Shown here in pieces: positions 32,378 through 64,000 of a DNA stretch of 64,000 nucleotides. This DNA comes from Fulvia fulva. Lineage: Eukaryota; Ascomycota; Dothideomycetes; Mycosphaerellales; Mycosphaerellaceae. The translations under genes and the position numbers were made by a program. Below the pieces are notes generated by a model that was not told the origin of the DNA, did not search any database, and saw only the letters and a program-made list of their open reading frames with translations. Position 1 is the stretch's first letter. Each line of letters opens with the position of its first letter. Location: NCBI RefSeq assembly GCF_020509005.1, contig NC_063014.1:2356001-2420000 (forward strand), written 5' to 3'.

Positions 32378-32419
32378 AGCGCTTACTAACATTCGCTACG
32401 ACAAGGAAGCCCTAAAGTA

Positions 32420-42300: not shown

Positions 42301-42540
42301 AGACTATCCGCCTTGTTAACTAATAAGGGCAAAAGCTTAATACGAAGCTACGCTACGTTAATATCTACTACTACTAGCTCCGATAGCGAGACTAGCGCGG
42401 AGACATTAAGATCAAGTATCTTAGTACTAACGACATGCCTATAGACGGGCTGACTAAGCTACTTCTACTATAGAAGCATAAGCACTTCGTTAAGCTGCTT
42501 AATATAGCTAAGGAAGGCGTAGACCAACGCACCTTAGTGC
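39336..42540 (+). pseudogene. Pol of element E: integrase, reverse transcriptase, RNase H
   Basis: The frame resumes after the LINE. The integrase spans about 39,480-40,150 (first-Asp region near 39,490; YSDNEPA with the second Asp near 39,680). RT spans about 40,930-41,650: FDIINAFLNSDLLY near 41,265; LVKALYGLKESP near 41,370; catalytic YVDD changed to YVND near 41,507. RNase H lies about 41,930-42,450, with SKSLIEAKLLGLS near 42,170 and the copia ending motif around NDMPIDGLTK near 42,430. Stops are TAG/TAA. Confidence 0.82.
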
Positions 42541-42559
42541 CCTCTATAGCCGTATTAGG

Positions 42560-43902
42560 AGGTAACGGGCTAATAGACGCCTAAGAAGCCCGTAGTAGCG
42601 GCCTTACCTTATCTCGAAACGAATACCAAACGGCTTTATCTTTACGGACACCTCTCTAGAAGCGCTAGTAGGCGCAAAACACGGCTACTAGTAGCTACTA
42701 ATACTATAGACGATAACGAAGCTAGGGCAAAGTATCTACTATTCACCGGTACGGCCCTAGTACTATTATTAATAGGTATTTCTCGGACTCCTATTAGCTA
42801 ATAGCGTAAGGGCGAGAAACACCCCTGTTACTAGTAGTAGCGTACGCGCGCGATAAAAGTAGCGCGTCTAATTAGAAAGCGAGAAACGCCTCTAACTTAC
42901 TACTAGTAATAATACTACTACCTTATCACTATATTATCCGCTACTTTCGTACCTTACATATAGCACATACTTGCCTAAAACAAAAAGGTGTTACTACCCT
43001 AAGGTAATGACCTTTAAAAGTATAGAAAGTAAGGTACCCTAAAGGTGCCTTTTTAACTTTCCGATACCGTTGCTCCGGTATTACCTATTAGAGCCCTATT
43101 ACACTTTATATAGTACAAGCTCTGTCGTAGACAGCCTAGTGCATTACGCTACTAACTAGTATCTTATACTCCCTAGGGGTAGAGCGAGCTCTCTTACTAT
43201 TCGCCGGAGCGAAATAACTTAGTATAGAGTAATTATCGGACAATTTAATAAGTTAAGCGGACGACAATATATGTTTAAGTATACGATAGGACTAAGGCTA
43301 CCCCTAGATTAAACTTAGGACCTCTAATGTTTGCCGGTAGGTAAGATAATTATATACTTAAGTGAAAGTCCGTGTAACGGGACTATTACCTAAGCTATCT
43401 TACCGGTAATAGTTATATATTCTATACTATTAAATAGGTACGAGTAGCGTAGTAGTAGAAGACGGCGGATTATACGAAAGACGAAGAAGGACCCAATAGG
43501 ATAGCGTGTATCTATATATAGTATCGCCGGTGTTAGTGTTAGTAGATACTAGGTGTCCGGATGTTTGCTAGCCTATAGGCTAGCAAACCCTAGTCACGTG
43601 ATCTAATCACATAACATACCCACACCTACATGCTTGTCCTACGGCCTGTATGTTCTCAACATATACTTTATTATATAGGTAACAATAGTAGTAGTGAAAG
43701 TGAGGAATAAGGGAAGGGGTATAAAGCTTACCTTACTTACCTTAGCTTACTTTACTTAAAACAGCTGACTTACCCTTACTATAGTAGTAGTAACACTAAG
43801 GGCCTAACGTTACTACTATAGGTAGGGGGGGTAGTTATAATAGGGTATACGCGATTATATAGGAATCAGCTCATTCACTCTAGCGTACGAGCTAAGGGGG
43901 TG
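42560..43902 (+). other. Long non-coding 3' region of element E with structured segments
   Basis: About 1.34 kb between the end of pol and the 3' LTR. No frame. It holds a perfect hairpin at 43563-43588 (11-bp arms GTTTGCTAGCC, 4-nt loop) and a longer imperfect fold at about 43,330-43,410 (arms around CCGGTAGGTAAGAT and ATCTTACCGG). It could be a captured sequence or a small unrecognised insertion. Confidence 0.5.
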
Positions 43903-44109
43903 TGTCGCGATCCGAGCGTATATATAGGTAACATCCTATTATCAAAACTTAAGGCTACGTATACTAAGAATTAGGTGACTAATTAGTCACCTATAGCCTC
44001 TTTAAGAGCAACACTTGTCTATTCTAGATAGATATATATAATACATAACCTACTTTTGAAACACCCTATATAAGCCCGTATAATAACTTCCTATACTTCT
44101 AACGTAATA
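43903..44109 (+). repeat. 3' LTR of element E
   Basis: 207 bp, TGTCGCGATCC...CGTAATA, preceded by AAGGGGG at 43894-43900. Confidence 0.94.
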
Positions 44110-44114
44110 TCTAC

Positions 44115-45219
44115 TACCCTAACCGTCGACTCGCGCTATACCGGTCCTTACTACTTCGGACCGTAAGCTTATCTAATTCTTACTCGATAGCGACTAGACC
44201 TTACTAGTAGTAGCTAAGCTACTCCTTAACGATTGCCGAGGCTAGCGTACTACTACTTACGTATATATTAAGAGGTAGAGCGAGTTAGGCTTTATATAGC
44301 CTTTAAATAGTAGATGGCCGTACCTAATCGAGCCGTATATAAGGGACTAGTTATTAGATCTAATAGCGGTTAAGAGTACGTATTAGTATAAAGAGTTAGC
44401 CTACTTTATCTTCTATAAATAGGGTATATTAGTCTATAAGAAGATAGTAGCGCGAGTATTAGCAAATAAGGAGTTCTCGAGGAAGGCGATATCGCGTATT
44501 ACTAAGTAGCGTAATCCGGTCGTACGCGCTATATTCGAAGGCCTATTATACTACTATTTAGAGCGTTAGTTACTATATATAGATAAGACCTATTATAGTA
44601 ATAAGATAGGTTATCGCCGCCGTAGATATTTATCTCGTAGTATACCGGCCTACGACCCTTAGTACCTCTATTATAGCTAGGCCTTTAGCGTCCTTCCGGC
44701 CTATACTATCGACGGCTACCTACCGTACCCTCTAATTAAACCCGGTAGCGTAAAGAAGGTAGACTTTATTAAGTAGTTAGTACTATCGGTACTACCGTAT
44801 TATTAGCTATTCCCTACGGCGCGGTCTATTATCGTAATAGATAACTACGCTACCTACGGCCGTATCGATAATAAAGAGCTATACGCCGCGTATAGCGTAA
44901 GGATACTATTCTTACCGCCGTATTTACCGGACTATAACCCTATTAAGAAGACCTTTAGGTTACTAAAGAGATAGATAAGGATAAACGCTAAGTCAATACC
45001 GGTATATAGTAAAGAAGGGTAGTAGTCGAAGTTTAAGGTATTCTTAGATAAGGCGTATAAGTACTAGAGCTACGGTATTAATTACTCGAACCTATTTTAT
45101 AGCTATTATAGTCTAAAAAATAGATATAAGGATAGCGCTATTAAACTATAACTACTATAAAGGTCTATAGGGCGGAAAAAATAGCTACGAGTCTACTCTA
45201 TAATATAGGATAATATATA
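44115..45219 (+). mobile_element. Tc1/mariner-type transposase relic, RIP-mutated
   Basis: A plus-strand frame with only TAG/TAA stops carries the DDE signature of Tc1-like transposases: a first-Asp block near 44,590 (YIDKTYYSN-like), SIIVIDNYATYGR near 44,830 (second Asp), and RILFLPPYLPDYNPI near 44,920 where the family has LPPYSPDLNPIE; the final acidic residue reads Lys here, which fits RIP. A helix-turn-helix N-terminus is suggested at 44,180-44,480. Terminal repeats were not identified. The left end may be the CpA-poor sequence before 32155, because element E inserted at this position. Confidence 0.75.
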
Positions 45220-45765
45220 ACGTACTTTACTAGCGAGCGGGCTATACTACCGAGTAGGCTACTTTTACTAAGAACTATACTACTTCTACTTTAACTACGA
45301 CGGTATCTTAATACGACGACATCCTATAGAATCGTTACTAGGAGGACAATTTCTCTTTAGATTCTTCGCTATCTAGCGAGTCTACTTAATAGGTACGTAC
45401 GTTATACCCCGACTCGCTATATTACTTATAGCGTCGTAGCCTTAGTACTAGCCGAACACTATCTAGCGACTCTCTACTTACTTTCTACCTCCTAGTATCC
45501 TCTAGAGGTATCAATTACGACGCTTTATCGAAGGTTAGAGACCCTCTAGACTGAATGTACTTACGCTTTCGTACTTTCCGCTATATAAGGGCCTCGTTAG
45601 ACTTACGTAGCTTACTAATCTCGCTTCGTATAAGAGCTATCTAATACGCTATCTCTCTACTCCCTCTCTATTGCCCTATTGAACGACCTTCCTCTTTCTA
45701 CTACGCCTTTCTAAACTCTTAACGACGCTCTAAGACGTAATAATACCTATTATAAACCCTGTCTC

Positions 45766-45960
45766 TATTACGGTTCACCTCGTAAGGCTATACTTAGTCT
45801 TACGTAACCTAGTACGCTAGCGCGCCCGGACCCTAGACCCTGACCTTAACGTTTACTTTATCGCGGCTTCGCGACTTTCTTATCTTCTCTTCTTTATAGA
45901 ACTTATTCGATTCTAAGGTATTAATACGTTTAAGCCCTATCTTACGCCTTGTCCGTATTA
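45766..45960 (+). repeat. 5' LTR of element D
   Basis: 195 bp, TATTACGGTTC...CCGTATTA. It ends as the A LTR does and shares GTAGAACTTATTCGATT-like sequence with it. Confidence 0.9.
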
Positions 45961-46099
45961 TTAAGTTCTACCGCCCTTAGATCGCCGAGCCGTATAATTA
46001 TAGACTACGTATCGCTACTATAACGGTATACGACCGAGACTCGAATAGCCGTAGGTACTAATTTGACTATCGGACTAGACGAATTATCCTTTATCCTAA

Positions 46100-46690
46100 G
46101 ACTTAACCTAAACCCTCTTATAAAGGCGTTCCTCCGAGAAGCCCGATAAAAGCGGAACGGCGTACTTAGCGTAGCGTAGTAAGAGGTAGAAGACGAGTCG
46201 TAGTAGGATCCGGATTTCGACGATACCGTAGGTATAGAACGACTACGTAATATAGCGTAAGAGATATAGAACGAGACTTAGGGTCGCGGAGATACTAAGT
46301 AGGCTCGTTAGTAAGAGGAAGAATGTCGGCGCTAGAAGTACTAAGAGCTACTATATAATAAGTATAACCGACGTTAGTCTAAGAAGGAAACTCGACTCCG
46401 TATAGGTAGAGAGGATAAGACCTTATAATAGGGTATACGTACGCGGAAGGAGGAACATCTTAGCTACCGCTATACGATACCGATTAACTTTACCTAGAAG
46501 GGCGAAGAGGTAGAATATAGGCTACGGTATAACCCTACCGAGTTCTAGATCGCTATAGCCGAGGAGCTTTCTCGCTCGGTTACTAAGAACCTAGAGGCCT
46601 AAAGGTTAGATATTAGACGACCTAGACATCGTTACTAATAGTCGACCCTACGACGCCCGCGTAATATAGATATAACTTAAGGCAAGCTAA
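46100..46690 (+). pseudogene. RIP-broken reading frame of unknown function inside element D
   Basis: One plus-strand frame from about 46,150 to 46,680 is interrupted many times, but every stop is TAA or TAG and none is TGA, which is what RIP makes of a real frame (CAA, CAG and TGG codons). Readable parts are charged and Arg/Glu-rich, for example GRGDTK, YNKYNRR, KKETRLRIGREDKTL, YRYTIPINFT and EEVEYRLRYNPTEF. I recognise no Gag, zinc knuckle or enzyme motif. It could be a Gag-like packaging protein or a passenger protein. The product cannot be assigned. Confidence 0.5.
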
Positions 46691-46899
46691 GGCTTAATAT
46701 ATAGTTAGCTTATCTAAGGTATACTACGGTATAATATAGACTCTCGACTTAAGGCTTACTACGGTAAGATATATAGTCTCTCTATAGTTAACCCGACGTA
46801 AGCTAGCGCTTCCTAATAGTATAGTTCTTTCTTACGGATATATACTACGGCGATATATTTCCGCGTACGAGGGCGTACGGCGGTTTAAGAGGGGGGTAG

Positions 46900-46977
46900 T
46901 ATTACGGTTTACCTCGTAAGGCTATACTTAGTATCACGTGACCTAGTACGCTAGCGCGCCCGGACCCTAGACCCTAA
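46900..46977 (+). repeat. 3' LTR of element D, first 78 bp
   Basis: Starts TATTACGG after the GGGGGG polypurine tract and breaks at the CCTAA target site of element A'; continues at 59969. Confidence 0.9.
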
Positions 46978-47173
46978 TGTTACGGGTCTAGGCTACTCTC
47001 GGTAGGTAAAAGGGTGTCGTAGCTAAGTAATCGAATAAGTTCTACGGAGAAGAGAAGTTCTAGCTAAGGCGCGTATCGAAGATAAGCGCGACGTTCGCCG
47101 AGCCGAGGCGTTACGTTATGTTTACGAAGTTACGTAACCCGTAGGCCGTAGGCCGTAGGGCTATACCGTGACA
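46978..47173 (-). repeat. 3' LTR of element A'
   Basis: 196 bp; reverse complement starts TGTCACGG and ends CCCGTAACA, the least mutated ends of the four LTRs of this family. The polypurine tract is at about 47176-47186 (complement). Confidence 0.93.
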
Positions 47174-47746
47174 CTACTCCCCTTCTCAAATCGGATTAAG
47201 CGCCTACGAGGCGGTATCTATTAATTCAAAATAAGTAACGCTCTATAGGGTATATCTATCTAACTCTATAATCTAAAACTCCGGTATATATAAAGATACG
47301 ACTATAGACGAGCCTAAGCTACGAGCAAAGCGACGTTACTAGCGGTAGCGAGTCCTAGGCGTAGATCGTAGAAACGAAGTAACTGTTTATTATGCCTTAG
47401 TACGCCTTAGGTTGTATCGTGACTAGTACTTAGCGTCGGCGGTAACGGTCGCGTCGTTATTAGTATCGCTAGTACTGTCCGCCGAGTCTATTAGCTCGGT
47501 TGTATTAGGCTCTAGTGCTTACTATCCGCGTAGAGGTCCTAGAGCGCGAGGGTTCTTATAATAGTAGTCTGCTACAAGTTCGTCTATAGTGCCTTTTAAG
47601 TTAATATAAGGTTCTTTAGTATATAACCTATCTACCTATTTAATAGTGTAGCTAATACTCTTCTTTACTTTTCTAGTCTAGCGACTGTCTACTACTACTA
47701 CGGCATCGTGCCATTCCTTAACTTCGCTATCGACTTCGGTAAGCGT

Positions 47747-47953
47747 TATTACGTTAGAAGTGTAGGAAGTTATTATACGGGCTTATATAGGGTGTTTCAA
47801 AAGCAGGTTGTGTATTGCATGTGTCTATCTAGAATGGACAAGTGTTGCTCTTGAAGAGGCTGTAGGTGACTAATCAGTCACCTGATTCTTAGCGTACGTG
47901 GCCTCAAGTTTTGATAATAGGATGTTGCCTATGTGCACGCTCGGATCGCGACA
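47747..47953 (-). mobile_element. Solo LTR of copia family E, nested in element A'
   Basis: 207 bp matching the element E LTRs in reverse, with perfect TSD AGCGT (47742-47746 and 47954-47958). The empty site is in element A at 14918-14922. It retains more CpA/TpG than either LTR of E. A solo LTR arises by recombination between the two LTRs of a full element. Confidence 0.95.
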
Positions 47954-48177
47954 AGCGTAGGTTCGTACGTCTATAAAGAGAACGGGTCTTCGGCGGATAG
48001 TCGTAGTAGGTCGGTATAGAACACGTAGTATATTCTTATGCTCGTAGGTAGGTCGAGTTCGTAGACATCGGTCGCTACTTTCTTTATAATCGTAAAGGGG
48101 CCTACGTTCTTATAATCAAGCTTCTTCGCTAGTCGTTTAGTACGAATATTGCGTAAATTGAGCCAAACCTTGTCTCC

Positions 48178-48412
48178 TGTTAAGATGTAGCATCTTAAAG
48201 GGAGTCAACAATCAGGAAGTGATCTGGCAGCCTGAGGCATCCACGATGACTCAGCTTGTAGGGAGATACCTTCTCTCCCCTTTAGCTTAGATAGACATCC
48301 AACACAATCAACATATTGGTTCCTGATATATTGCTGCATGCTCGTGCTATTAGTCAGTTGAAGATTGATCTCTTACTCCACTCCGCTGCCATCCACCCGT
48401 ACCTGTTCAACA
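48178..48412 (+). repeat. 5' LTR of element F
   Basis: 235 bp, TGTTAAGATG...TTCAACA. One RIP-type change relative to the 3' LTR (CTTAAAGG here, CTCAAAGG there). Confidence 0.95.
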
Positions 48413-48427
48413 GGTTATGAGCCCGGG
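48413..48427 (+). promoter_or_regulatory. Primer-binding site of element F (initiator Met tRNA half-molecule)
   Basis: GGTTATGAGCCCGGG lies immediately after the LTR. It is complementary to the anticodon stem-loop of initiator tRNA-Met (GGGCTCATAACC), the priming mode known from Drosophila copia. No tRNA gene is present here. Confidence 0.75.
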
Positions 48428-48860
48428 TTTGTGCAGGAATAAGAGCAACCTATATCAGTACAGGTTACTTGTATCCCTTGCTATCGTAGCAGAAAACATC
48501 TGGGAATCAGAAGTCTACCCCGTCTATCCTATCAAGGAGCTTAGTTCGATACTAAGTGATAGGTAACCCAGACAAGGACTCTGTGCGGCTTACTCAAAGC
48601 CAATACCTTGAAGATACTCTGTAGGCAGAACTGCATCGAGATACTATCAAGAAGGACTTCAAGTAAGTCATTTGAAGCTCTGCTAGGAGAGACAGACCTG
48701 TGTCCTAGCCCCGAGACCTCACACCGCTCCTTCTTTACTTTACCAAGCAGGCCTTGGTATCCACACCTACGAACTTTCCCATTCTACACCAGAAGCCTCA
48801 GCAGGATCTGAGCCACCACCTTGGAACATACACACCTTGTTTCATTACATCCAATTTATT

Positions 48861-51800
48861 ATGGATTCATACCAAGAGAAGACAGAGGAGAAGGGAGGCA
48901 AAATCCCAATTCTTGGGAGGGACAATTGGAAGAGATGGTTCAACCTTCAGAGATACAAGATGGAGAGCCAATCAGCATTCTTTGCAATTGATGACCTAAT
49001 GGAAGTGTCTTTTGACAACATCAAGGGCAAGACTCTGAAACTCCAAGAAGAGGCTACAACCAAAGAGATCCTCAATACGCCAACATGGACAAGACACAAT
49101 GCAGTATGCAACTTCAGTATCCTTAGTAGGATCACAGAAGAAGATGAATTTGAGCTTGAGGGCTCATGTGAATCTGGAAGAGCTGCTGAGAAGTGGGTGT
49201 ATCTCTGGAACAAGTATAGCCAGGTGCTACCAACCCATGCACATGAGCTCACAAAGCAATTTGTGACCTTTGAGATGAGTGAAGAGTTCACCATCAGATC
49301 CGCATGGACACACCTGGTTTCTCTTGGAAAAAGGATTGCTGATGTTGACCCAGAGGGTCAGCATTACAGGAAAGCTGATGTGAGGATGACCCAGCTCTTA
49401 AGCTCACTGCCACCTGACTACCATGTAGCCAGGGATACTATCATGGCTCAGCCAAAGATGGATCATGAAAGGACCTTAAAGATCCTTGAAGCTCAAGAAG
49501 CCAGGTTGGATCCCTCTAAGGCTGAGTATGGCATGGCAGCCACCTGGGTCAAGCCCTCAGGTCTAGCAAGACCACTCTCCTGCCTTCTCTGTGAGAAGGA
49601 TCATCTGATCAAGGACTGCCCTAGTTTGCCTGAGGCAAGAAAGGTCCTTAGATCTCATTCCCAACCACCATCTTCCCAGAATACAACACATGTCAAGAAG
49701 AAGAGAACTCCACCACCCACTTCAAGGAGGACACCAAGAGAGAAGTCCTCTATGGAAGAACTTAAGAAAATGGTGAAGAAACTCAGCTCTGACATGCTGT
49801 CACTCCAGAAGAACCAGGCCCAGTCTTATACCTCTAAAGCAAAGAAGACTGGAAAAGGTTTCTCCGCCCAAGAGTCACCATGCAGCTCATCCCCAGAGAC
49901 AATGTCTGATGATGATGAGTATGATGAAGTGGCTCACTCAACTGCAGAAGTCCAAGGCAAGTTCCCCTCGTCAGAGTGGTTACTTGACTCCTGTGCTTCA
50001 TCCCATATGACTGACCAAAGCTGCCTCTTTAGATCTATGACTCCCTTGACAAGGAAGAAATGGATCAAAGTGGGAGGTGGGTTTTTATTGGCCACTCATA
50101 TTGGGAATGCAGAGATGAGTGGGAGAGCTGGCAGAAAAGTTGTTTTGGAAGATGTCCTGCTTGTACCCAAGCTAGGAGTGAACCTGGTTTCATGGAACCA
50201 GTTTAGCAAGCAGTTTGGTGTGCAACCTCCATCATTTTCTCTTGTTTCCCCCTCTGGTGAGACTGTTGTCCAGACAAAGCTCCTTGGGGGGGTTCCATTC
50301 ATTGATGAGATTTCTCCTCTCCTACAAGAACGGGCACATTACTCATCATGTGCACCACCAATGGAGAATGCCTTTGTGACTGCTCAATCAGAGACCGACC
50401 TGAAGCAGTGGGAGCTTTGGCATAGAAGATTTGCACACTTTGGGAAGAATTTGCTCCAGAATCTTCACAAGGTAACAGACTTGAAAGAACCCATTCCTAT
50501 CCCTAAGGATGGCTTTCACCAGTGCAGAGTATGCTCAATAGCAAAGATGAAGAAGTACAAAGGCAAAGTTACAGAGAGAAGACCTGAAAGACTTGCCCTT
50601 GTATCTATTGACATATGTGGCCCACTACCAATCTCAAGACTAGGATTCAAATACTGGCTTGAGATTGTTGACAACTTCTCTAGGAAGAAGTGGACCTTTC
50701 CTCTTAGGAAAAGAGAAGATGCTCCAGTTGCTCTCCAGAACTGGAAGATCAAAGCAGAGAGGAAATCATCAGCGCAGCTGAAAGCAGTAAGACTTGACAA
50801 TGCAAAAGAACTTATTGCATTAGTGAAGCAGTGGGAGAAGGATTTGGGGGTTGGGCTCGAGCCGACTGAGGCATACAACTCTCTACAGAATGGACCAGTT
50901 GAGAGGTCAATACAAACCTCAGAGGACTCTATAAGGGCAATGCTTGAAGAGGCTAAAATGCCGGTTGAATTTGGGCCTGAAGCACTAGAGGCCCAAACTT
51001 ATATGAGGAACAAACTGCCAAATGGCCCAGATTACGATGGGTTCAAGGTTTCACCAGATGAGGCTTTTGATGGTATCAAACCGACCATCAACCATTTGAA
51101 AGTTTGGGGATGCAAAGCTGTTGTCTATATGGACACAAGATCCCAACCTCAATGGGCAAGAAGTGACAAGCTAATGAATAGGGGTAAAGAAGCAGTGTTT
51201 ATTGGGTATGTTGAAAACACAGCTAAAGCCTGGCTCTTTTGGGAACCAGACATGAGAGCTGTTAAACAACACACACATGCAGACTTCTTTGAGGACCAGC
51301 CTGGAGGTGATATGGGTCTCAATGTTCCAACATTGAATCTACCAAGCAGTGCACCAGCTAGGAAGCCCTTAGGAAGGCCGAGGAAGAACGTATCCTTAGG
51401 ACAATCTACCTACCATTCAGGCGTCCATCAGAGCCCCCCCGAAATAGATCAGCCAATTGAGAGCCCTAAAGTCGCTCAGCCGAGAAAGCTGTTTGTGCAA
51501 CTTCCCCAGCCTCCGGAGAACGTAGGGGAATTTCAGAAAATCGATCAGCCAATTGAGAGAAGCTCCCTAGATCCCCAGGAAATAGACGTTACTAGGTCAC
51601 AAGTGACGGTCCCTAAATCATCCCTTAGAAAGAGAAAGGCTGACTATGATGTTGAGGGCTATGATATGAAACAGAAAGCCCCAAGATCTATGGTCCCTAA
51701 GCCCGAACTAACCACTGAAGTGGGAGAAGCAATGGACCTCTCAGAGAACCTTGCTGCTTTTCACCAAGCTTTCTTTGCAGCCATGCAATCAGTGGACAGT

Positions 51801-53492
51801 TCAATACCATGGGATAGCGAATTCCTGGAAGAAGTTGAGGAAATGGCCTTTGCAGCAACTGTAGAAGCCATTGCATACAAGCAAGAGGTCCCAATTCCAA
51901 AATCCTACAAGGATGCTGTGAATGACAAGAAATGGGGACATCTTTGGAAGGAAGCAATCCAAAAGGAACTAGATGCTCTACAGAGTAACAACACCTGGGA
52001 AAATTCTGTTCCACCAAAAGGAGCAAATCTGGTTACATCAAGATGGGTCTTTGATATTAAGAGAAGCATTAGTGGAGCTATTGAAAAGTTCAAGGCTAGA
52101 CTAGTTGCAAGGGGCTTCTCACAGAAGTTTGGTGTTGACTTTATGGAGACATTTGCACCTACAGTAAGATAGGACACCCTTAGGGTGTTTATGGCTATTG
52201 TGTGTAAGAAGGATCTTCATCTTCACTAAGTGGATGTGAACAATGCATTCACAGAAAGCACCCTCCATGAAGACATCTTCATGTTACCACCACCAGGAGT
52301 TGAGCTTCCACCAAACATGGTGTTCAAAATCCTCAAAAGCTTGTATGGACTTAAGCAAGCAGCTAGAGATTGGAATCAACTCTGTGTGTCAAAGCTCAGA
52401 GAGATTGGATTCACACAGTCAGAAGTGGATCCATGCCTACTTATCCATAAGAAGAGGGAGATCATAATCCTTATACATGTGGATGACATTCCAATTGCTG
52501 CACCAAAGTTGACAGATGTTCTCTGGTTCAAAAGAGAACTTGGCAAGATCTTCAAGATCAAAGATCTAGGTAAACCTGAAAAGATCCTTGGCATGAGAGT
52601 CACAAGGGACAGGAAGAGAGGAATCCTGAAACTTGACCAAGGACACTTTGTTAGGGACAGCCTAGCCAAGATGGGAATGAACCATGAGAAGGCAGCACCT
52701 ACACACTCACCCATGGACAGCTATGAGGCCCTCAAACCTTCAAGCCACATGGATGAGAGGTGTGACAAGGCAGAGTACCAGAGTATTAATGGTACTTGGA
52801 TGTGGCCAGCAACAATCACAAGGCCAGACATCGCTTTTGCCCTAGGAAGGATGAGCTCATTTGTGAGTGACCCATCCACCTACCACATGAAGGCTTTGAA
52901 GAAGATCACTAGGTACCTAAGATCATACCCTGATCTAGGACTTCAGTTCTCAAAGTCTGGAAAAGGACACCTTATTGGATACTGTGATTCTGATTATGCA
53001 ATGGACAAAGCAGACAGAGTCTCAATCCTTGGGTATGTCTTCTTCCTCTGTGGGGCACCAGTTTCTTGGATGAGCAAGAAGCAAAAGTCTGTAGCAACAT
53101 CCACAATGGAGGCTGAATACATGGCTATGAATGCATGTGCGAAGCAGTCCCAATTCCTAGCTTCACTGCTAAGGGAAATGGATTGTCCAGAGTTAGTGGG
53201 AGACTGTTCCCATCAACCAAGAATCACTGGAAACCAGGAGACTGTATCAAATTTGAGACCAGTCCAATTAAGAGGTGACAATCAAGCTGCCCTCACCCTA
53301 GTGAAAGATGCACATGTTCATGACAAGTCGAAGCACATTGACATTGCCTATAACGCTGTTAGGAAACTTTGGTGGAGGAGGCTTATTGCTGTTGAGTACA
53401 CCCCAACCTCTGAGATGGTTGCAGACGGGTTTACAAAACCAAAGACTGGTCCACACTTCCAGAGGTTTGTAAGCCAGCTGAACCTGTCATAA
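48861..53492 (+). pseudogene. Copia Gag-Pol polyprotein of element F, two nonsense codons
   Basis: Single frame from ATG 48861 (MDSYQEKTEEKG), 1543 codons plus stop; the 24 upstream codons in frame lack an ATG. Domains in order: Gag core; zinc knuckle CLLCEKDHLIKDC (one residue shorter than usual between Cys and His); protease near 49,990 with LLDSCASSHMTD (Cys where relatives usually have Gly); pre-integrase zinc WHRRFAHFG...CRVC; integrase with IDICGP, RLDNAKE and NGPVERS carrying D, D and E; RT with VDVNNAF and IHVDDI near 52,480; RNase H with GYCDSDY and STMEAEYMA. Premature stops TAG 52170-52172 and TAA 52227-52229 both lie inside RT at positions where copia proteins commonly have Gln, so each fits one C-to-T change at CpA. 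Confidence 0.93.
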
Positions 53493-53557
53493 AAAGGTCC
53501 AAGTACTATTGACAGGAAGTGAGCAGACTGTAACCTCCCATACGAGATGAGTGGGAG

Positions 53558-53792
53558 TGTTAAGATGTAGCATCTCAAAGGGAGTCAACAATCAGGAAGT
53601 GATCTGGCAGCCTGAGGCATCCACGATGACTCAGCTTGTAGGGAGATACCTTCTCTCCCCTTTAGCTTAGATAGACATCCAACACAATCAACATATTAGT
53701 TCCTGATATATTGCTGCATGCTCGTGCTATTAGTCAGTTAAAGATTGATCTCTTACTCCACTCCGCTACTATCCACCCGTACCTGTTTAACA
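53558..53792 (+). repeat. 3' LTR of element F
   Basis: 235 bp. Carries TTAGTT, GTTAAAG, GCTACTATCC and TTTAACA where the 5' LTR has TTGGTT, GTTGAAG, GCTGCCATCC and TTCAACA; all are RIP-type changes. Confidence 0.95.
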
Positions 53793-53797
53793 TCTCC

Positions 53798-56700
53798 TAC
53801 CTTATAAGACCGCGTAGGTCTCCGGCTATGTTTCTGATAGTCGGCTTCAAGCTATGCTTATATGTACTTAAGCTAGTTAATGCAATGTGTATATACACGG
53901 CTTATATAAGTTGCGAAAGCGTCTATATCTTATTAGCTAATTTTCTACGTAGCTAGTAGTACGTCCGTACGGGTAGGTCTACTAAGAACTTCTATTCTTA
54001 GGTTTCTTCCTAAGGTTACGAAGAACGGTAACACGCCGGCAGTGCTTTTTGTGTTATTTAAAGCAAACTCCGCTATTAGTAGCTAGTCGTACTAGTTGTC
54101 TTAGGCATAATTGATATATATACGTAGGTACTACTCTATAACTTAGTTCGTACGTTCGGACTGACTATCGGTCTAAGGGTGCTATACCGTCGACATCTTA
54201 TACTTAATGCCTAGGCGTTCGCAAAGCGTCTTCTAGAAGCGACTTACCTACTACGAGCCGCGGTCTAAGTAGATAGAGCGGAATAGGCCTTGATCCTTAA
54301 TAACGTAGCGGATGATTATATCTATAGCTATCTCGGGCTCTATGTCGACGACTAGTATAAGGTACTTGCGCTTTATAAGACGACATATTAAGGTAAGGAT
54401 GTTGTTATACTTGACGCCCTCCGGGCTATAGCTGTCTAGAAGTGCTATAATATAGTCTAGGGCCACTTCCTCGAATATACCGTTAGGTATTAGGATTTGC
54501 TTAAGGTTGCCCTAGTACGTATTATAGAAAGCCTTGGTTCTAGTGTATATATAACAGTTCTTTATATATCGTGCGATGTCAGCCTATATACTAGGCTAAT
54601 AGTACGTACGAGTTATTAGCTCGTATATCTTCTCGCGCCCCGGGTAGCCGGCTATAGGGGCATTATAACAAGCGGCTATAAGTTCTTCGCGGATGTTACT
54701 ACTATTAGGCACGTAGAGGCGGCCTTGAATATAAATCAGGTCGTGCTCTAGTTCGTACTCGCTAAGATTGATATACGTGTTCAATTTCTACGGTAGCCGA
54801 CTATCGCTAGCTTATAGGCCTTTCTTAATTACTACTACGAGCTCGTCCTGATCGTAGGCGTTCTAGATCTCTTCCTTAATAGACGCCTCGTTCGCGTTAA
54901 GTACGGCAAGCGCGAGCTAATATTAGTCGCGAGCGTTCGTATACGTTATTATTACTAATACTCTAAGAGACTCCTATACTTTAGGGGCGAGGTTACGTTC
55001 CTTTAAGACCGTTTGTTATCTGTTCTTAATATCGTCTATTACGTCTATGTCCTAAGTACGGCGTGTTAGGGCATTAGGCTTACCGCCTAGCTTACCTAGT
55101 CGGTATTCGATCTAGAAATCGAACCCGGACAAGAATTCACTCTATCGTACTTATCGGCAATTCAGCTACTTAGTAGTTATAAAGTATTATAGACCGCGGT
55201 AATTAGATAACACCCTAGTCTTACTACCTATTAGCTCTAGCCGCCATTCCTTAAAAGCTCGAACGATGGCTATAAGCTCCTTGTCGTAGATCTTATAGTT
55301 ATACTCGGCTAGATCTATCTTCTACGAATAGTATATAACTAGGTAAAGCTGTCCGTCTTCTCCGATCTATAAAAGAACGCTACCGGTATATCTATTAGAG
55401 GCGTCGTATTCGACAACGTAAGGCTTAGTTAGGTCAAAGTACTATAGTACTAGTTGCTTCGTAAACTCCGCCTTAAGCCTATTAAAAGCTTGCTAGCACT
55501 CTAGTATCTAGTTCCAAGTGTATTTCGTAGGTCGCTTTGACTTGTCCTTACTACCGACCCCCTTCGTAAGAGTAGTTATAGGCAGTACGATGTTCGAGAA
55601 GCCTTCTACGAACCTTCGATAGAAGTTCGCGAGGCCGAGGAAGGAAAGGACGTCCTTTACGCTTCTAGGTGTCTCCTACTCGAGGATCGTCTTGATCTTC
55701 TTTAGGTCTATCTTGATACCTTCGGTAGTAATAATTAGACTAAGGTACTTAACTTCCTTCTAGAAAAACTTGCTCTTCGCGATGTCTAATAGTAGTTTAG
55801 TATCGATGAAGCAGTCTAGCACCTTAAGTATATGTTCTATATACTCCTCTCTTGTACTGCTAAAGACGATCGTATTATCAAGGTATACGGTGACGAAGTC
55901 GTTAAGGTAAGGCCTTAGGGCTTTGTTAATGTAGGCCTAGAAGACGCTAGGAGCGTTATACAATCCGAAGGGCACTACTAGGTACTTAAAGGTCCTATAC
56001 CGTGAGGTGAATATAGTCTTCTATTTATCGCCTACTCGGATACGTAGTTTATTAAAGGTAGTAACGACATCGAGTACGGTAAAGTATTAGTACCCGCTTA
56101 TTCGCTATAGTGTCTCTCGAACCTACGGGATAGGGTATCAGTTCTTGATCGTAATAGCGTTGACTGCTCTATAGTCTACGTAGACGCGTAGTCTACTACC
56201 TAGCTTTCTAATAATAATGACTAGCGATGTAATACGTAAGGTGCTTTCTCTAATTTTGCCTTTCGTCTTCAAGTCGTCGATATACTTCTTTACGACTTCG
56301 AGCTCCTATAGGCTCATTAGATATAGTCGAGCGAAAGGCAGCTTAGTACCTAGGTCAAAGTCGATAGCGAGGTCGTCTCCTTTACGGTAAGGAGGTAAGG
56401 CATCGTCTCCTATACGTAGAACGAAGGCCTTACGTCGCGACTTGAATTTACGCGGAAGCGATATATCTAGGTCTACTTCGTCTTTGCCTTTTATATATTG
56501 TTAGAAGTCGGACGCTACTATAGCGCTAAGCTATATACTAACTTCTTCTATAGCCTCCTCCTTAGTTATAGGTAGCGCGTCGTCATTCTGCTCCTAAATC
56601 AGGTAGCCTTCTTATAGTTATTAGCCCTCTTTAAGCTAATCTTCTAGACATTCTACGGCCTCCGTAGTACTTATAGACGAGATGTCAATACCTATAATTA

Positions 56701-57420
56701 CCGCTACGTCTGTCCGATCGGCACGCTATTACTACTAAGCTTGTGCTTGTTTTTCTAGTTAATAGCGTACCGTTATTAGTATTCTTTCGTAATAGTCTCC
56801 GTAGTAAGACGTGAATATAATAGTGTTCGTCTAGTTCCCGAAGTCTAGCAGGTGTTTCTATACCTACGGTATACTAAGAATGAAGTTATACTTAATGCCG
56901 GTAACAAAGTAGTTTAATTCTTCGACGTAACCGTTTAGGTCTAGAGTCGCTTTTACGTACTCCGTAGCTTCGTTCTTCTTAGACGGGTCTACTATACCGA
57001 TTCTAAATAGAGTAGGTAGCTTTGTCCGATTACAATCCTTTATAAACTTCGTACTACAAAAGATCGACTATACGCCTAGATCTACTAGGCATCTAGTAGG
57101 CTTGCCTTTAACGGTACCGTATATAATGAGACGATTACTACGTAGCGGGATGTCGACTTTAATTACTCCGACCTTTATAGTCTCGATATCTATAACCTTA
57201 GGTATGTCTGCCTCCGAAGTCTACCGCTATAGTGAGTTGACCTTTTTGTTTCGTTACTAGGGCATCGGCGTAGGTTCTAACATCCTTAGCGGGCCTTTGC
57301 CTAACGGATGTATACTCGGTTCTTCTAACGTAAGGTGCTCGTAGATGTTCTTAGGAGGATCTTTGCTAGGCGTAATGTTAGCTATAGTAACAATAGCTAC
57401 ACTCTAAACTATACGCCTTA
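53798..57420 (-). pseudogene. Pol of element A' (protease to integrase)
   Basis: Minus strand, mirror of element A pol. Integrase fragments: 54784-54596 (NLSEYELEHDLIYIQGRLYVP, H2C2 region) and 54466-54251 (ALDYIIALLDSYSPEGVKYNN, ending at SIYLDRGS with the second Asp). RNase H lies about 55,440-55,150. RT lies about 56,340-55,680 with the catalytic box YLDN near 55,880 (first Asp kept, second changed). Protease is near 57,110. The chromodomain end lies beyond element F at about 47,960-47,530. Stops are TAG/TAA. Confidence 0.8.
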
Positions 57421-57439
57421 GTCTAGAGTTACCCCGTTT

Positions 57440-59640
57440 CTCTATTATTAGGGTTCGAAGTCGATAAGGTTCTAGTCGACCGTAGTAGCTACGTTACCTC
57501 TAGTATTACCCTTACGGAACTAGAACTATTCGTAAGATTAGTACTACTAGTTATAGTCCGGGCTCTTATATACGTAGTAGAACGTCTTATCCTTCTAGTA
57601 CGCCGCTTTATCCTTCGTGAGCTTGCGATATGTCAAGCTAGTACGCTTAGCGGCTACTATGTCGTACTGTTAGTATACCTTCTCGTCTATACGCTCGCTA
57701 CGCGGCTTACCTATAGGTCCTCGACCGCCGCCGCCGTCTCTAGTACTACTAGAGGAACCTAGTCGCGTATTACCTTAGCTACCGGTCTAGCCTCCTCTAC
57801 TTAGCTTCTTACCGGGTAGTTACTACTACTAGCGCGGTATATCGTCGAGGTCGATCTCGATATTACGGAGAGTATCTTCTATCTCGGTTAGGCTCCTAAA
57901 CCGTATACCCGCGATCTTCGCGCGTAGACGTAGAAGAATCTTCTCCTTAAGGTTCTCTATTAGTTCTTCGCGCCCGTCCTTAGTAGTATACTTCCTAAGG
58001 TAGTACGTATACTCGGAAAACTTCGTATAGAAGAGGTTAAACTTCTTACCCTACTTCTATTCGAGTTCGTAAAAGGCCTTACGGTAACGACGCTTCTCGA
58101 AGTAGTCGCTATATAATAAGTCGAGGATCTCGAGAGCCTTATTCTAATGCTTAATAGTGGGCTTATAAGGTCGAATACGGCCGAGAGCGTTCGTACCTAC
58201 TAGGCTATAGAACATAATATATAATTCGGTATCCGATTAATTAGGTTCTATAAGTAGGTACTCGCTAACCTTCTTACGCTACTTAATATAGCTGACCTTG
58301 TCTTCCTTTAGGTCGGCGTAGAAGACAGGTAGAACCTTAATAGGGTTCTTCTAAGATATGTTAATAGACTTTATAGACTACGTACCTAGAGTTAGGGTAG
58401 GGGTAAAAGGACGCGCGTATAGATTAGGCGTATTATTAGCGTCGCCGAACCTACCGAGACCCCCTAATATCAACTAGTATAGAGTCGATGTACGTATATT
58501 ACGGATGCTATCGTCGTAAGCGGTCTCGAAGTTATTAATACCTATAAATTCGACTTCTTGCCTACGCCCGCCTAGCGCGCTAGCCGTACGTTATAGTAGC
58601 GTAGTTCCGAGCTCTCGTAGTAGGACTTTCTCTATATACGTATTGACGCGAACACCTAGAGTGTTTCCTACGTCCTTCTTTCGTAAATCTAGGAGGGCGC
58701 GTAGCTTAGAGGGCTAGCGAGCTAGTGTCGTTAGTCTCTTCGGCTATTACTATTACTTCTAAAGTGCTTCGAGCTCCTTAATACGCTACTTTAGACTCTC
58801 GACTAACCTACGCTAAGTGTTGTTATCCTCTTATAGGCTCTCGATTTCTGCTATAGCATCTTCCGTATCGCCGTCCTTAGTCTATACCTTAGCTTCTAGT
58901 TCTTAGATTCGCCTATCCTTTTCCTCGTTCTGAACGGTCAGACCTTTAATAATGCCCGCCGCTTCTTCCGAGTCCTCCTTTTCTTACTAAAGGGCTGCCT
59001 CGAGGTTGACTTTCTTACCCGTTAGGTTAATAACTCGGTCGCGAGAGTTCTTAAGTAAGGCCTTACTATAAGTATATATCTATATCCTAAAGTCGAGGGC
59101 ATTAAGCTAAGCTTTAGGTCTCTTCTTAACTAACGCCGCTAACTCTTCGTAGGTATATAGCTTGAATACTTATAGATCGTATCGGAACTAAGCGCCTTTA
59201 GTATCTTCTATAGGATCTAGGGGTATAGTATACGATAGGTCGAGCGGCGCGTACTAGCCTCCCTACCTATCTGCTCTCGACGATACATCCTGTCCTCTAT
59301 CTTATTAGTAAATACGCTCACGCCGGTCGTACTTAGTCTTAAGAGTCGTATACGTGATTTCCGTCTTCTACTATTAACCCGCCGTCGCTTATCGTATCTA
59401 GTAGGTCTGATCTTAGCTATCGACTATAGTCTAACTTCTGTTATTCTATTAGGTCTACTACGGTTACGATTCGTAATTATCGGTAGCTATAGTCGCGGCT
59501 ATCTCGAATCCTCGACGGTTCGGCGGATATTAATATTAATCCTACGTGTCTCGACGAACTCCTACGAAAGTGTCTACGACTAACTATGTCGTATCCTCCT
59601 CTTCTATACACTTCCTACGTATATAGGACACCCGATTATA
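57440..59640 (-). pseudogene. Gag region of element A'
   Basis: Mirror of 2870-5060 with the same coiled-coil-like stretch (about 59,010-58,750) and Gag core (about 58,340-57,830). Internal distance from LTR to the C insertion point is 4293 bp here and 4292 bp in A, so few indels have accumulated; most differences are RIP transitions. Confidence 0.65.
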
Positions 59641-59767
59641 CTACTATAATCCGCCTCGAACTCGGGGTCTTGTTCGCTAACTCCTACTAAAGTGTCGTAA
59701 ACCGGTCGGTAATGTCGCCGATAATATACGTACTTACTATAGAGGGATTTAGAGTAGTAGAACTTAA

Positions 59768-59963
59768 TATTACGGGTCTAGGCTACTCTCGGTAGGTAAA
59801 AGGGTATCGTAGCTAAGTAATCGAATAAGTTCTACGGAGAAGAGAAGTTCTAGCTAAGGCGCGTATCGAAGATAAGCGCGACGTTCGCCGAGCCGAGGCG
59901 TTACGTTATGTTTACGAAGTCACGTGACCCGTAGGCCGTAGGCCGTAGGGCTATACCGTGACA
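59768..59963 (-). repeat. 5' LTR of element A'
   Basis: 196 bp; its outer end TGTCACGG faces the CCTAA TSD at 59964-59968. Confidence 0.93.
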
Positions 59964-59968
59964 CCTAA

Positions 59969-60085
59969 GCTCGACGTTTACTTTATCGCGGCTTCGCGAC
60001 TTTCTTATCTTCTCTTCTTTATAGAACTTATTAGATTCTAAGGTATTAATACGTTTGCGCCCTATCTTACGCCTTATCCGTATTA
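59969..60085 (+). repeat. 3' LTR of element D, last 117 bp
   Basis: Continues 46900-46977 after removal of A' and one CCTAA; the joined length is 195 bp, equal to the left LTR. Ends CCGTATTA before TSD GTCTC. Confidence 0.9.
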
Positions 60086-60677
60086 GTCTCGTCGAACTTA
60101 TAGGTGTCCTAGTTAAGGATACTCCACTTCTCCTTTATATTACCTATAAGTAAGAACTACTTCTCTATAACGTCTAGATCTTCTATTAGGGCTCGCTAAC
60201 GATCGTATCTACGTATTATACAAACCTTTAGCTCACGATACCGCCTAATAAACCTGTCTATCTAATTGAGACTAGCGGGCTTAAGACCCTTCTCTTATAG
60301 TAAAAAATCGGCTATTGCTCGTATACTAGCCTTTAATAGCGGGAAACCTCTAAGATCTAGCTCGAGTATATACTCAAGTATCACCCTCTCTTCTAGCTTT
60401 ATAAGCTTCTTCGAATTAGGCTCGTAGTCACCCGGAGGAGGTCGTTTATTTAATCAATACCCTAGTATAGTTCGAGACGCGTCGTATACCTTTATAGCAA
60501 GTCAATTCGTGATTATCGCGTCGCGTTTCGTAGCCTAGACAGCTAAGGTCAATTTGGCCTCGTTTGAAGACAATACACGCTATAATAGTAGTTATATAGC
60601 TATATCTATAGAAGTAGTACAGTTCTTAGTAAAAGTAGCCCGCTCGGTAGTATAGCCCGCTTAGTAGTAAAGTACGT

Positions 60678-62106
60678 TATCTACTTTACTATTATAGTAC
60701 TACTATATTCCTACTACGATGTTTCTAGTCCTAATACTACTAGACTAGGACGGATATCGCCGTACTACGCTTATAAGCCCGCTACGGAAAGTCTTAAGAT
60801 AGCTTATATAATATAAAGTACTAGTAAGATAGGAACACTAGTAAGCTAGGAATTTTGTCTTAGTATAACTAACTCGTATTCTTTATTAATCGTTTTCACT
60901 ACTATTAGATAGAGAACTAGTGAACTCAATACTCTTATCCGATTCAGAATTGTTCTCTTTGTCTTCCTAGTATGTTCGTACGTTATAGCTAGTCTAACCG
61001 TAGTTACTATACCGTCGTCTACTTAGCTAGCCCTCTTTTGTACCCTCTGACCTACGACTCTTCTTTAACTGTTCTATAGCCTTTAACGACTCGACGACTA
61101 CCTATAACGAGCCAACTCTATACTCTAAGACCCCGCCGTACTAGAGACGCTTTTGTTTACGAGATTAGCGCTTTATAAGAGTCTTAACTTGTCGTTTAAG
61201 CTTAGAGTTACGAGCTCTAAGAAGCGTATTCTCTTATAGTATTACTTCGCTACCTTTTATAAGCTAATAGAAGCTATTATAAGCTGTTTTAGAGTTACTT
61301 AGTATAGCGTCGTATATAAGCGTAGATTATAACGTAAACTCCTTCGAATTACTTAGAGTTTAAGACTACTATAATGTCGTCTAAGGCGGGGTTAGTCCGA
61401 GCGGGGTTCGTAGGCGTATATTAAGGCGATTAAGTACTACTTACGCGTTAATAGGAACTAACCCTATAGCCTTAAAGGCCTTCTTATAGTTTAACGCGGT
61501 AAACACGTCGAAAAACGCGTCTTTAAACACCGGAAGAAAGGTTTCTTTATTAATATAGAAGACGCGTTATAAGTACTTTAGCTTTAACAGCGTAAACTAA
61601 ACTACGTTAAGAGGCTATAGGATATATAACGAATACGCCGGTATATAGAGCGTAAGGATCTTATAGTCTAGATAGTAGTCCTTAAAACCCTAGTTTAAAT
61701 AGCTCTTATAGCCGTCTAAAATAAGTAATCTATAGCTACCTATAGAACGCGCCTCTATATACGCGTTAAAGTGCTTTAACTACTCGAGGCTAAGCACGTT
61801 ATTTATCTATCTATTCTCGGAGACCGTAAGCTTCTAATTCCGCGGTATATCTACCTCTTTATACTATACTAAAATGTGGACGCGCCCTTTATAGATAATA
61901 AAGGGCGGGGTCGAGTAGCTAGCGGTATAGATGCTCTAAATGATTATAACCTACTCTCTATTACTAGGCTAAGTAGCCGTAGGGCGAGAGCGTCGTTCTG
62001 AGCTAGTATCGACTTTTATAGAGCTAATTACGCCTATCTAAAAGCCCGTCTTATTAAAGTTATAGATATCCTTGTTATATACGCTATACTTAGTAATCGT
62101 CTCTTA
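60678..62106 (-). mobile_element. Fot1/pogo transposase relic H, RIP-mutated, split by a LINE
   Basis: The minus strand from about 62,105 reads DIYNFNKTGF (family DIYNFDETGF: catalytic Asp changed to Asn and the next Glu to Lys), then ISSIKVDTSSERRSRP, TPPFIIYKGRVHILV, SYRLLILDGYKSYLN (second catalytic Asp, LILDGH in relatives), LYIPAYSLYILQPLNVVQF (LLQPLDVG in relatives) and YINKETFLPVFKDAFF. A basic C-terminal tail runs to about 60,850. Pogo/Fot1 transposases move by cut-and-paste into TA sites. The N-terminal part would lie beyond the LINE at 62107. Terminal repeats were not found. Confidence 0.85.
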
Positions 62107-64000
62107 TATAGATAGATAGATATTTTATTAAGCTATTATAGTACCCTCTAGCCTATATAGCTATACTATCTTATTTTCGTATATATAGAGGGGAACCCGT
62201 ATTAGTAAAAACCCCTCCTCTTTCCCGCCTATCTTTTCCCCCTCGTTCTCGTCTTAGGTTTCCCTTATTAAGGGTACACTAGTATTATAGGCCTACCCTA
62301 ATAACTACCCTATCTACAACCCCTCTAGCTTCCGCCTCTGGTCTATCTACTCCTCCGTCTTACTAGCTAGGCTTAACTACTAGAGGTATCCCTACTATAA
62401 GTATCTACCGAGAGATTCGGCGAATATTGCCTTTGTCCCTAACAATTGACTTATAGTCTCTCCTCTCCGCTTAGTACCTCTAATTTCCCCTACTACTCGC
62501 TACTACGGGTATTATAGTAGTATATATTCTAGGTTTTACGATAGGTAGCTATACTAGTAGGCTAGGCTTTAGATATCTAGTACGCGTCTCCTAAATAGGG
62601 AGGCCCTTAATCTAATATATTTAGACCTAATTTGGATCGCTATACTTGCTTCGGCCCTTATTAGGTTCCTATATAGCTAGTAATTATGTCTCTAGAAGGC
62701 TCGGAGTACTATCGGGCCTATTGTCTTAGGGGCTTCCTTTTCTAGTCCTACTCCTATAGGTAGCTCGCTATCTATTCCGCTAGGCTTTAGGTCTTAGCCT
62801 TACTCCCGCCGGCCTAGCGAGCCCTACGCTCCTCCTCTTTTCGTACTAGCTATTCGGTACATATCTATACGGCCGTAAAGGTAGTAAGGTCATCCTTTTT
62901 TTAACTTGTCCTATATCCGGCCCCTCTCCGGTAGCGGCTTTCTATCTTATTCTTTACCTCCTAGATTATAGTTTATACTAGGTAATCTGTCGTCTTTACC
63001 GCGTATTAGATTCTTATTCCCCGGATATATTAGTCGATTAGTAGTGTTTCCGTCTCTATTTCTATCGTACTTATTAACGTTATCTTATATACCCCTAGTA
63101 TACTATATAGATTACCTACCTACGCCTCCTATACCCTAAATCTGTGCCCCGTATAATATAGCTAGTTTAACGATCGCCTTATATATTACCCTTACCTTAT
63201 CGAATATTACTCTCTATATAGACGCCGTAAGCCTCTTTATCGAGGCTTCGTTAACTTACGCTCGACTCTAGGCTTTCTTAATCTTTACGTTCTAGCTTAG
63301 CTTTAGGTCGAGCTAGATCCCTAGTACTCGTAGCTCCGCTAATAGCTTAGTCTCGTAGCCGTAGATTCTTACCGCCGCCTTTGTATTATAGTACGTTCTC
63401 GCTTTACTAAAGTATATAAGCTAGTACTTTTCGGGAGCGAACCGGGTACTATACTTCTTTACCTACTCCTTATATTTCTTATACCTATCTTTAAGGAGGC
63501 GACAGTTCTTCTCTATCGAGTCTAACTAGGCTAGAATGTTTATATTGTCTACGAATCCTAATACTAAGGTTTATAGAGAGGTAAGTAGGGGGACTAGATC
63601 AGACATAAATATTAGAAATAGAGAAGAGGAGAGAGTAGATCCCTAAGGTATTCTAGCCTCTACCTTTACCGGGTCGGACGTATACCTCCCTAGGACTAGG
63701 TATGTCGTCCGTTCCTAGAGAAAGGAGTAGACGAACTTCGTTACCTACTAGGGGATGCCTTTCGATTATAGGATATATATTAGCCTTTAGTATAAGACGT
63801 TATCGAAGGCTCCTATAATGTCGAGGGATAGTAAGGACGCCGCTCGGTTCCTACTATAGTACTAGAGGGTCTAAATTTACTCCGTGATTAGCTCTATTAC
63901 TATTAGTATCGATCGCTAGCTTCTTCCCCCTATCTATATTACTAGGAGTACGTGGTTGTCCTCGGCTAGCTACGTAAGTCTCTAGGCTACTATCTTCTCT
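62107..64000 (-). mobile_element. Second LINE copy (same family as 34427-39320), cut by window end
   Basis: Aligns almost base for base with 34427-36375: the same tail of AGAT units at the left end, then the 3' region and RT. It is far more RIP-mutated (for example TTATTAGGTTCC for TTGTCAGGTCCC). The catalytic box near 63,550 reads FVDN rather than FVDD, through a change at CpG. The 5' half and TSD lie outside the window. It inserted into relic H. Confidence 0.92.

What the first reader, a model, noticed from the sequence alone, without database searches (positions are those of the whole stretch)
45220..60677. Four-level nest of transposons resolved to the base
Fot1-like G contains LTR element D (TSD GTCTC), which contains gypsy A' (TSD CCTAA), which contains copia F (TSD TCTCC) and a solo E LTR (TSD AGCGT). 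D, A', F and the solo LTR all have perfect 5-bp duplications; D's right LTR is split 78 + 117 bp around A'. The order of insertion can be read directly, giving a relative clock for repeat activity and RIP.
Basis: seen in the sequence. Interest (0 to 1): 0.75.

Follow-up and report, generated by a model that had tools for sequence, protein, structure and literature searches.

The report
Five-deep nest of fungal transposons
A stretch of fungal chromosome holds mobile elements that jumped into one another like Russian dolls, five layers deep rather than the four first reported; it is a very clean example of a well-known pattern, and only the nesting itself, not the mutation levels, gives a trustworthy order of events.

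Summary
G (45220-60677), D (45766-60085), A' (46978-59963), F (48178-53792) and the solo E LTR (47747-47953) have the stated boundaries and duplications; D's right LTR is 78 + 117 bp. Uninterrupted copies exist at every level: 7 of 7 G copies fetched, 39 of 39 other D LTRs scored, 34 of 34 A copies at the F site and 37 of 37 at the E site.
The nest is larger than reported. G sits inside K, a Tc1/mariner-like element whose empty site is continuous at five other places. K also holds a full-length E copia (TSD TCTAC), itself split by a LINE-like insert with a 15-bp duplication. G and D are internally deleted, non-autonomous elements.
The clock claim is only partly supported. G, D and A' are all heavily RIPed. 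Solo LTRs are poor RIP clocks. LTR divergence makes F (2.6%) older than its host A' (2.0%), which is impossible. F is the one firm marker: it entered after A' was heavily RIPed and took light RIP-type changes afterwards.
A published fungal table already lists a four-level nest (PMC4522978, Table 4). This is a new example of a known kind; interest is low.

The parts
31970..32155 (+). K, left piece: left end of a Tc1/mariner-like element (TA target), the outermost layer; beside a host aldehyde dehydrogenase-like frame
   Evidence: Matches L065-L067 with a sharp common left end; one-base boundary inferred from sequence; only partly RIPed, O/E 0.62
32156..44109 (-). E, full-length copia element inside K, TSD TCTAC; its LTRs are 32156-32362 and 43903-44109
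   Evidence: Colinear with E copy L071; TSD and uninterrupted site in K copies L065-L067
34427..39320 (-). LINE-like insert inside E: AGAT-repeat tail, no LTR or TIR seen, 15-bp duplication GAACGTATTAAGTAG at 34412-34426 and 39321-39335
   Evidence: E copy L071 aligns on both sides with a 15-bp overlap; sequence; no Pfam domain in 4 open pieces, so the class rests on structure
44115..45219 (+). K, middle piece, carries the DDE transposase region, RIP-saturated
   Evidence: 80-82% to L065-L067; an L066 frame matches DDE_3 PF13358, E 1.9e-24
45220..60677 (-). G, non-autonomous Fot1/pogo-type DNA element (1133 bp in copies without D), about 69-bp inverted ends, TA duplication
   Evidence: tblastn to L083 on both sides of a central deletion
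45766..60085 (+). D, non-autonomous gypsy derivative of about 1.33 kb (without A'), TSD GTCTC; LTRs 45766-45960 and 46900-46977 + 59969-60085
   Evidence: 3 other copies span the internal deletion, one of them with about 30 extra bases
46978..59963 (-). A', gypsy element inside D's right LTR, TSD CCTAA, LTRs of 196 bp
   Evidence: tblastn of another gypsy polymerase of this window to A', E 1.8e-147
47747..47953 (+). Solo LTR of copia family E, TSD AGCGT
48178..53792 (+). F, copia element, LTRs of 235 bp, TSD TCTCC, pol spread over two open frames, lightly RIPed
60680..60810 (+). K, right piece, ends where J begins
   Evidence: end coordinate inferred from sequence
60811..62104 (-). J, DDE_1 (Fot1/pogo-type) element that abuts and probably interrupts K; continues beyond the window
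   Evidence: DDE_1 match at window 61558-61959, minus strand; inverted end found again at L073:3914-4146; exact start inferred
62105..64000 (-). Second copy of the LINE-like element, within J, running off the window
   Evidence: 84.7% to 34428-36371; continuation in L073

Best explanation
This is a transposon cluster built by successive independent insertions in a fungal genome with RIP. Shown: K was entered by G and, separately, by a full-length E copia that was in turn split by a LINE-like insert. G was entered by the non-autonomous gypsy D, D's right LTR by gypsy A', and A' by copia F and by an E element of which only a solo LTR remains. Shown: G and D are internally deleted relatives of larger elements in this genome. 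Inferred: they were moved by proteins of those relatives. Inferred: the E solo LTR arose by recombination between two LTRs. Inferred: A' was heavily RIPed before F entered; F belongs to a recently active family and took only a few RIP-type changes after landing.
For: TSDs and LTR/TIR boundaries. Empty sites at every level. Three junctions of this branch each found exactly once in the assembly. CpA+TpG O/E is 1.2-1.3 in F against 0.28-0.29 in A' on either side. Two other F copies are identical over 5615 bp, each with identical LTRs and its own TSD. Window F differs from them at 20 bases. Of 14 C-to-T or G-to-A changes on the window side, 13 are in CpA/TpG context (36% expected, P 1.4e-5), and 5 of the 13 lie in the last 115 bp. 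Other mini-D copies carry their own perfect TSD in 2 of 3. Four DNA-methylase matches at three loci are present, one with the EQT motif that I recall as typical of RID/Masc1.
Against: K was not seen to resume beyond J in the next 10 kb, so K's full length and the relation of J to K are open. K's left piece is only partly RIPed (0.62). The third other mini-D copy, L057, shows only 4 of 5 TSD bases. D's right LTR has one transversion just beside the A' insertion that none of the 12 D LTRs viewed shows. The two F copies used as yardstick are identical, so they are one comparison, and they are taken to show the earlier state. In three other partial comparisons (L036, L038, L041) the RIP-type differences lie mostly on the other copy's side, 5, 8 and 6 against 2. 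Empty-site counts come from best-scored copies only. RIP level appears to be a family property, so it neither confirms nor contradicts the order among K, G, D and A'.
Confidence: 0.94

Rival explanations
1. Part of the nest is a composite element that moves as a unit (for example G carrying D), so that the layers are not separate events.
For: D and G lie near one another at other places too, for example L029 and L072.
Against: 7 of 7 G copies fetched lack D at this site. In L029 D sits at a different place in G, and in L072 it lies beside an uninterrupted G. The G/D junction was found only once.
Confidence: 0.02
2. Assembly error: reads of several repeats were joined falsely into an apparent nest.
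For: The parts are multi-copy repeats; no reads could be examined.
Against: Five 5-bp duplications and one of 15 bp sit exactly at element ends, which false joins would not produce, and the flanking halves continue one another in uninterrupted copies.
Confidence: 0.03
3. RIP levels give a true relative clock along the nest, with the E solo LTR and F both dated after A' by their lack of RIP.
For: O/E of CpA+TpG is 0.03-0.30 in K's middle piece, G, D and A', then 1.11 in the E solo LTR and 1.19-1.32 in F.
Against: The outer layers are near saturation and D is lower than G around it. The E solo LTR (207 bp) may be too short for RIP, as proposed for Podospora (PMC10787394). Even the LTRs of the RIPed full-length E are partly spared (0.48 and 0.80 against 0.26-0.28 inside). 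LTR divergence contradicts the nest for F and A'.
Confidence: 0.2

Closest known systems
Nested transposon clusters of Mycosphaerella graminicola (PMC4522978; passages on nesting, section 8 with Table 4)
   Same: 78 putative clusters of 7.5-63 kb, RIP-like mutation, LTR elements as the main primary inserts; base-element TSDs verified in 35 of 49 clusters with an LTR base; one entry, 242 (49 (263 (623))), is four levels deep; eight clusters over 20 kb have a DNA or unclassified base
   Different: Here TSDs were read at each inner level, two deleted non-autonomous elements take part, and this branch has five levels
crapaud LTR retrotransposon and RIP in Podospora (PMC10787394; passages, section 11)
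   Same: RIPed and un-RIPed copies of one family, solo or fragment LTRs mostly free of RIP, bursts of copies with different RIP levels
   Different: That study compares species and subfamilies; here there is one locus in one genome
Nested retrotransposons of maize (recalled; mentioned in a passage of PMC4522978)
   Same: Order of insertion read from nesting (recalled)
   Different: No RIP there (recalled), so LTR divergence is a usable clock, unlike here

Membership tests
Copia (Ty1) LTR retrotransposon: F | LTR pair with TG...CA ends and 5-bp TSD | tested here: met
   TGTTAAG...AACA, 235 bp, TCTCC
Copia (Ty1) LTR retrotransposon: F | Integrase before reverse transcriptase, copia-type gag and RVT_2 | tested here: met
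   Retrotran_gag_2, gag_pre-integrs, rve, then RVT_2 over two frames; rve and gag_pre-integrs score under their curated cut-offs
Copia: E | Full-length relatives with two LTRs and copia-type reverse transcriptase | tested here: met
   9 LTR pairs spaced 6.2-6.6 kb among 41 matches; the L071 frame of 1769 codons has RVT_2 at E 1.6e-36, no integrase model reported
Gypsy (Ty3): A' | Gypsy-type RT/RNase H/integrase | tested here: met
   Residues 231-1126 of a gypsy polymerase of this window (Pfam RVT_1, RNase H, rve, Chromo) align to A' in one match, 37% identity, E 1.8e-147; three open A' pieces alone hit no Pfam model
Gypsy derivative: D | LTRs shared with larger elements that carry gypsy pol | tested here: met
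   In L024-L027 and L029 the D LTR and D's internal end are followed by 66-67% similarity to A' pol (5 of 11 other D loci fetched)
Fot1/pogo-type DNA transposon: G | TIRs and TA target duplication | tested here: met
Fot1/pogo-type DNA transposon: G | Complete DDE_1 transposase | tested here: not met
   Central part absent; related to L083 on both sides; no Pfam match in two long frames of G copies L007 and L008. Hence a derivative, not a full member
Tc1/mariner: K | DDE transposase and TA target | tested here: inconclusive
   DDE_3 in L066 and TA at the left end in three copies; right end and TIR pair not settled
Non-LTR retrotransposon: insert in E | Variable-length TSD and repeat tail | tested here: met
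   15-bp TSD, AGAT tail
Non-LTR retrotransposon: insert in E | Reverse transcriptase domain | tested here: inconclusive
   No Pfam match in 4 open pieces

The most novel reading that the evidence does not exclude
The E family was active both before and after the heavy RIP episode at this locus: an old full-length E in K was RIPed, while a younger E entered RIPed A' and collapsed to an un-RIPed solo LTR. RIP then continued weakly, spilling from A' into the near end of F. The nest would thus record a family that outlived RIP and a host whose RIP weakened, allowing the F burst.
Probability: 0.3. Interest if true: 0.35.

Novelty: new member of a known kind. Interest (0 to 1): 0.17.

Why it matters
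It is a clean worked example of how insertion order can be read in a RIP-active fungus, and of why RIP level and LTR divergence must not be used as clocks there: the innermost element looks older than its host by LTR divergence. The contrast between heavily RIPed layers and a very recently active copia family (two copies identical over 5.6 kb) suggests a change in RIP efficiency or in sexual reproduction in this lineage, which comparison of isolates could test.

Tried and rejected
Composite G+D unit: rejected. Nest copied elsewhere by segmental duplication: not seen at the three junctions searched; the A'/E, K/G and K/E junctions were not searched as patterns. A second A'/F junction at C2: chance, no similarity around it. 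Ordering the outer layers by RIP index: rejected, near saturation. Ordering by LTR divergence: contradicted by nesting. A RIP-type base in both copies of the A' TSD as proof that D was RIPed first: not decisive, since 8 of 12 D LTR copies viewed carry the same base (the window's own left LTR, one of the 12, does not). The same holds for the E TSD in K: both copies read TCTAC where un-RIPed K copies L065-L067 read TCCAC, which fits K being RIPed first but also two separate hits. K's right end and its resumption after J: not found in L073. Naming the organism: in the aldehyde dehydrogenase search, 2 of the 120 listed rows (of 509) name an organism, the better being Glarea lozoyensis at 70% identity over 65% of the query; organism left open. 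Pfam on two G frames, three LINE pieces plus one earlier, and three A' pieces gave nothing. A paper search on RIP leakage and one on nested elements and relative age were seen as listings only.
Full report
What was checked. The window is C3:2356001-2420000 of an unnamed 67.2-Mb assembly in 14 contigs. A self-comparison of the window and direct reading of the junctions reproduce every boundary in the finding: G 45220-60677, D 45766-60085, A' 46978-59963, F 48178-53792, E solo LTR 47747-47953. The duplications are GTCTC, CCTAA, TCTCC and AGCGT; G has a TA duplication, which alone is weak. D's right LTR is 46900-46977 plus 59969-60085, i.e. 78 + 117 bp. Four exact 5-mers at boundaries set by homology have a chance probability near 1e-12.

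Empty sites. The G copies L002-L008 run through the D site in 7 of 7 cases, and so do L011, L029, L072 and L073. The 39 other D LTRs among the 40 scored (198 candidates) run from position 5 or earlier to 194 or later, across the A' site. With the in-window A copy as query, 41 matches were listed: the query itself, three pieces of A', and 37 others. Of those 37, 34 reach and cross the F site and all 37 cross the E site (40 of 51 candidates scored). The in-window A copy reads GTCTCC-TACC and AAGCGT-AGGTTC without inserts. Only the best candidates are scored, so these numbers favour uninterrupted copies.

Uniqueness. At up to 3 mismatches the G/D junction was found once, in the window (the reversed control pattern also matched once). 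The A'/F junction was found once, apart from one 3-mismatch match with no similarity around it. The D/A' junction was found exactly once; of 15 further matches with 2-3 mismatches, 14 read like A's own internal-to-LTR boundary and one was not examined. D-in-G in L029 is at another position, and in L072 D lies next to an uninterrupted G. The layers are therefore independent insertions, not one composite.

A fifth level. Joining the two flanks of G gives a sequence that is continuous at five other places (C12, C1 twice, C14, C11). The fetched copies show an element K with a common left end at about 31970 in the window. K is broken in the window by a large insert at 32156-44109, by G, and probably by J. 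The insert 32156-44109 is a full-length E: its LTRs are 32156-32362 and 43903-44109, its TSD is TCTAC, and K copies L065-L067 read through the site. E is itself interrupted by 34427-39320, flanked by the 15-bp duplication GAACGTATTAAGTAG and ending in an AGAT repeat, as expected of a non-LTR retrotransposon. No Pfam domain was found in four open pieces of it. A frame of K copy L066 matches DDE_3 at E 1.9e-24. J, starting near 60811, carries a DDE_1 match at 61558-61959 and holds a second copy of the LINE-like element. The other end of J lies in the next 10 kb, but K was not seen to resume there.

What the members are. F is copia by domain order, its pol spread over two open frames, 48837-52172 and 52230-53492. 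A' is gypsy: the polymerase of the gypsy at 15050-21177 aligns to it at E 1.8e-147. D is a deletion derivative. In 5 of 11 other D loci fetched, D sequence continues into sequence 66-67% similar to A' polymerase. Three other copies span D's internal junction, one of them with about 30 extra bases, and two of the three have their own perfect TSD. G is a deletion derivative of a DDE_1 element: L083 frames match G at 71-78% on both sides of the missing centre. E has full-length relatives: nine LTR pairs spaced 6.2-6.6 kb are visible among 41 matches, and the frame of L071 has a copia-type RVT_2 domain. The solo LTR at 47747-47953 therefore most likely reflects recombination between two LTRs, an inference from established knowledge.

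RIP and time. CpA+TpG observed/expected: K middle piece 0.03; G 0.14 and 0.30; D 0.04-0.21; A' 0.26-0.29 inside and 0.21 in LTRs; E solo 1.11; F 1.19-1.32. K's short left piece is 0.62. Five other G copies are equally low, 0.11-0.21, so the level looks like a property of the family more than of depth. LTR differences are 12 of 195 in D, 4 of 196 in A' and 6 of 235 in F; all 4 in A' and all 6 in F are CpA/TpG-type transitions. Taken at face value F would be older than A', which nesting forbids. The full-length E in K has RIPed interiors (0.26-0.28) but partly spared LTRs (0.48, 0.80), and Podospora solo LTRs mostly lack RIP (PMC10787394, section 11). The E solo LTR is therefore not a date.

F is a usable marker: it is 5.6 kb long, and two other full copies are identical over 5615 bases, each with identical LTRs and its own TSD. 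Being identical, they count as one comparison. Window F differs from them at 20 bases. Thirteen of 14 C-to-T or G-to-A changes on the window side are in CpA/TpG context against 36% expected (P 1.4e-5), and five of the 13 lie in the last 115 bases (P 4e-6, bin chosen after seeing the data). In 11 partial comparisons, three other F copies (L036, L038, L041) carry more RIP-type differences on their own side than the window does, so light RIP is not peculiar to this copy. F therefore entered A' after heavy RIP, and some RIP-like mutation followed, strongest at the edge facing the long arm of A'. Four DNA-methylase matches lie at three loci; one has an EQT motif, which I recall as typical of RID/Masc1, in an open frame. 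Its function is untested.

Known or new. Mycosphaerella graminicola has 78 putative nested clusters, with base-element TSDs verified in 35 of the 49 that have an LTR base, and one listed four-level nest, 242 (49 (263 (623))) (PMC4522978, section 8). The present locus is a well-resolved further example with one more level. Its practical lesson is that nesting order is reliable here while RIP level and LTR divergence are not.

Noticed in passing
window 2539-21829: A second gypsy A copy, itself nested: it is split by an LTR element at 7030-13016 (LTRs 185 bp, 98.9% alike) and by a gypsy element at about 15050-21177 with long open gag (424 aa) and pol (1399 aa, chromodomain) frames; A' shows both empty sites.
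   Followed up: partly
window 45961-46899 and L056, L057, L058: D is a roughly 1.33-kb gypsy-derived non-autonomous element with at least four copies spanning one internal deletion (one with about 30 extra bases), reminiscent of TRIM-type elements.
   Followed up: partly
L081 and L082 (C8 and C7): Two copies of copia F identical over 5615 bases with identical LTRs: very recent activity beside heavily RIPed repeats.
   Followed up: partly
L065, L066, L067: Three K copies share about 1.5 kb of similar sequence beyond the point where I would expect a Tc1-like element to end, while their left flanks differ; K may be part of a larger element.
   Followed up: no
L077-L080 (C9:1870393, C1:10966321-10967269, C9:2207160): Three loci with C5 DNA-methylase matches and open frames; the C1 one has an EQT motif as I recall for RID/Masc1.
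   Followed up: partly
window 31169-31795: Aldehyde dehydrogenase-like reading frame about 170 bases from the left edge of the cluster; K starts close to its 3' side.
   Followed up: no
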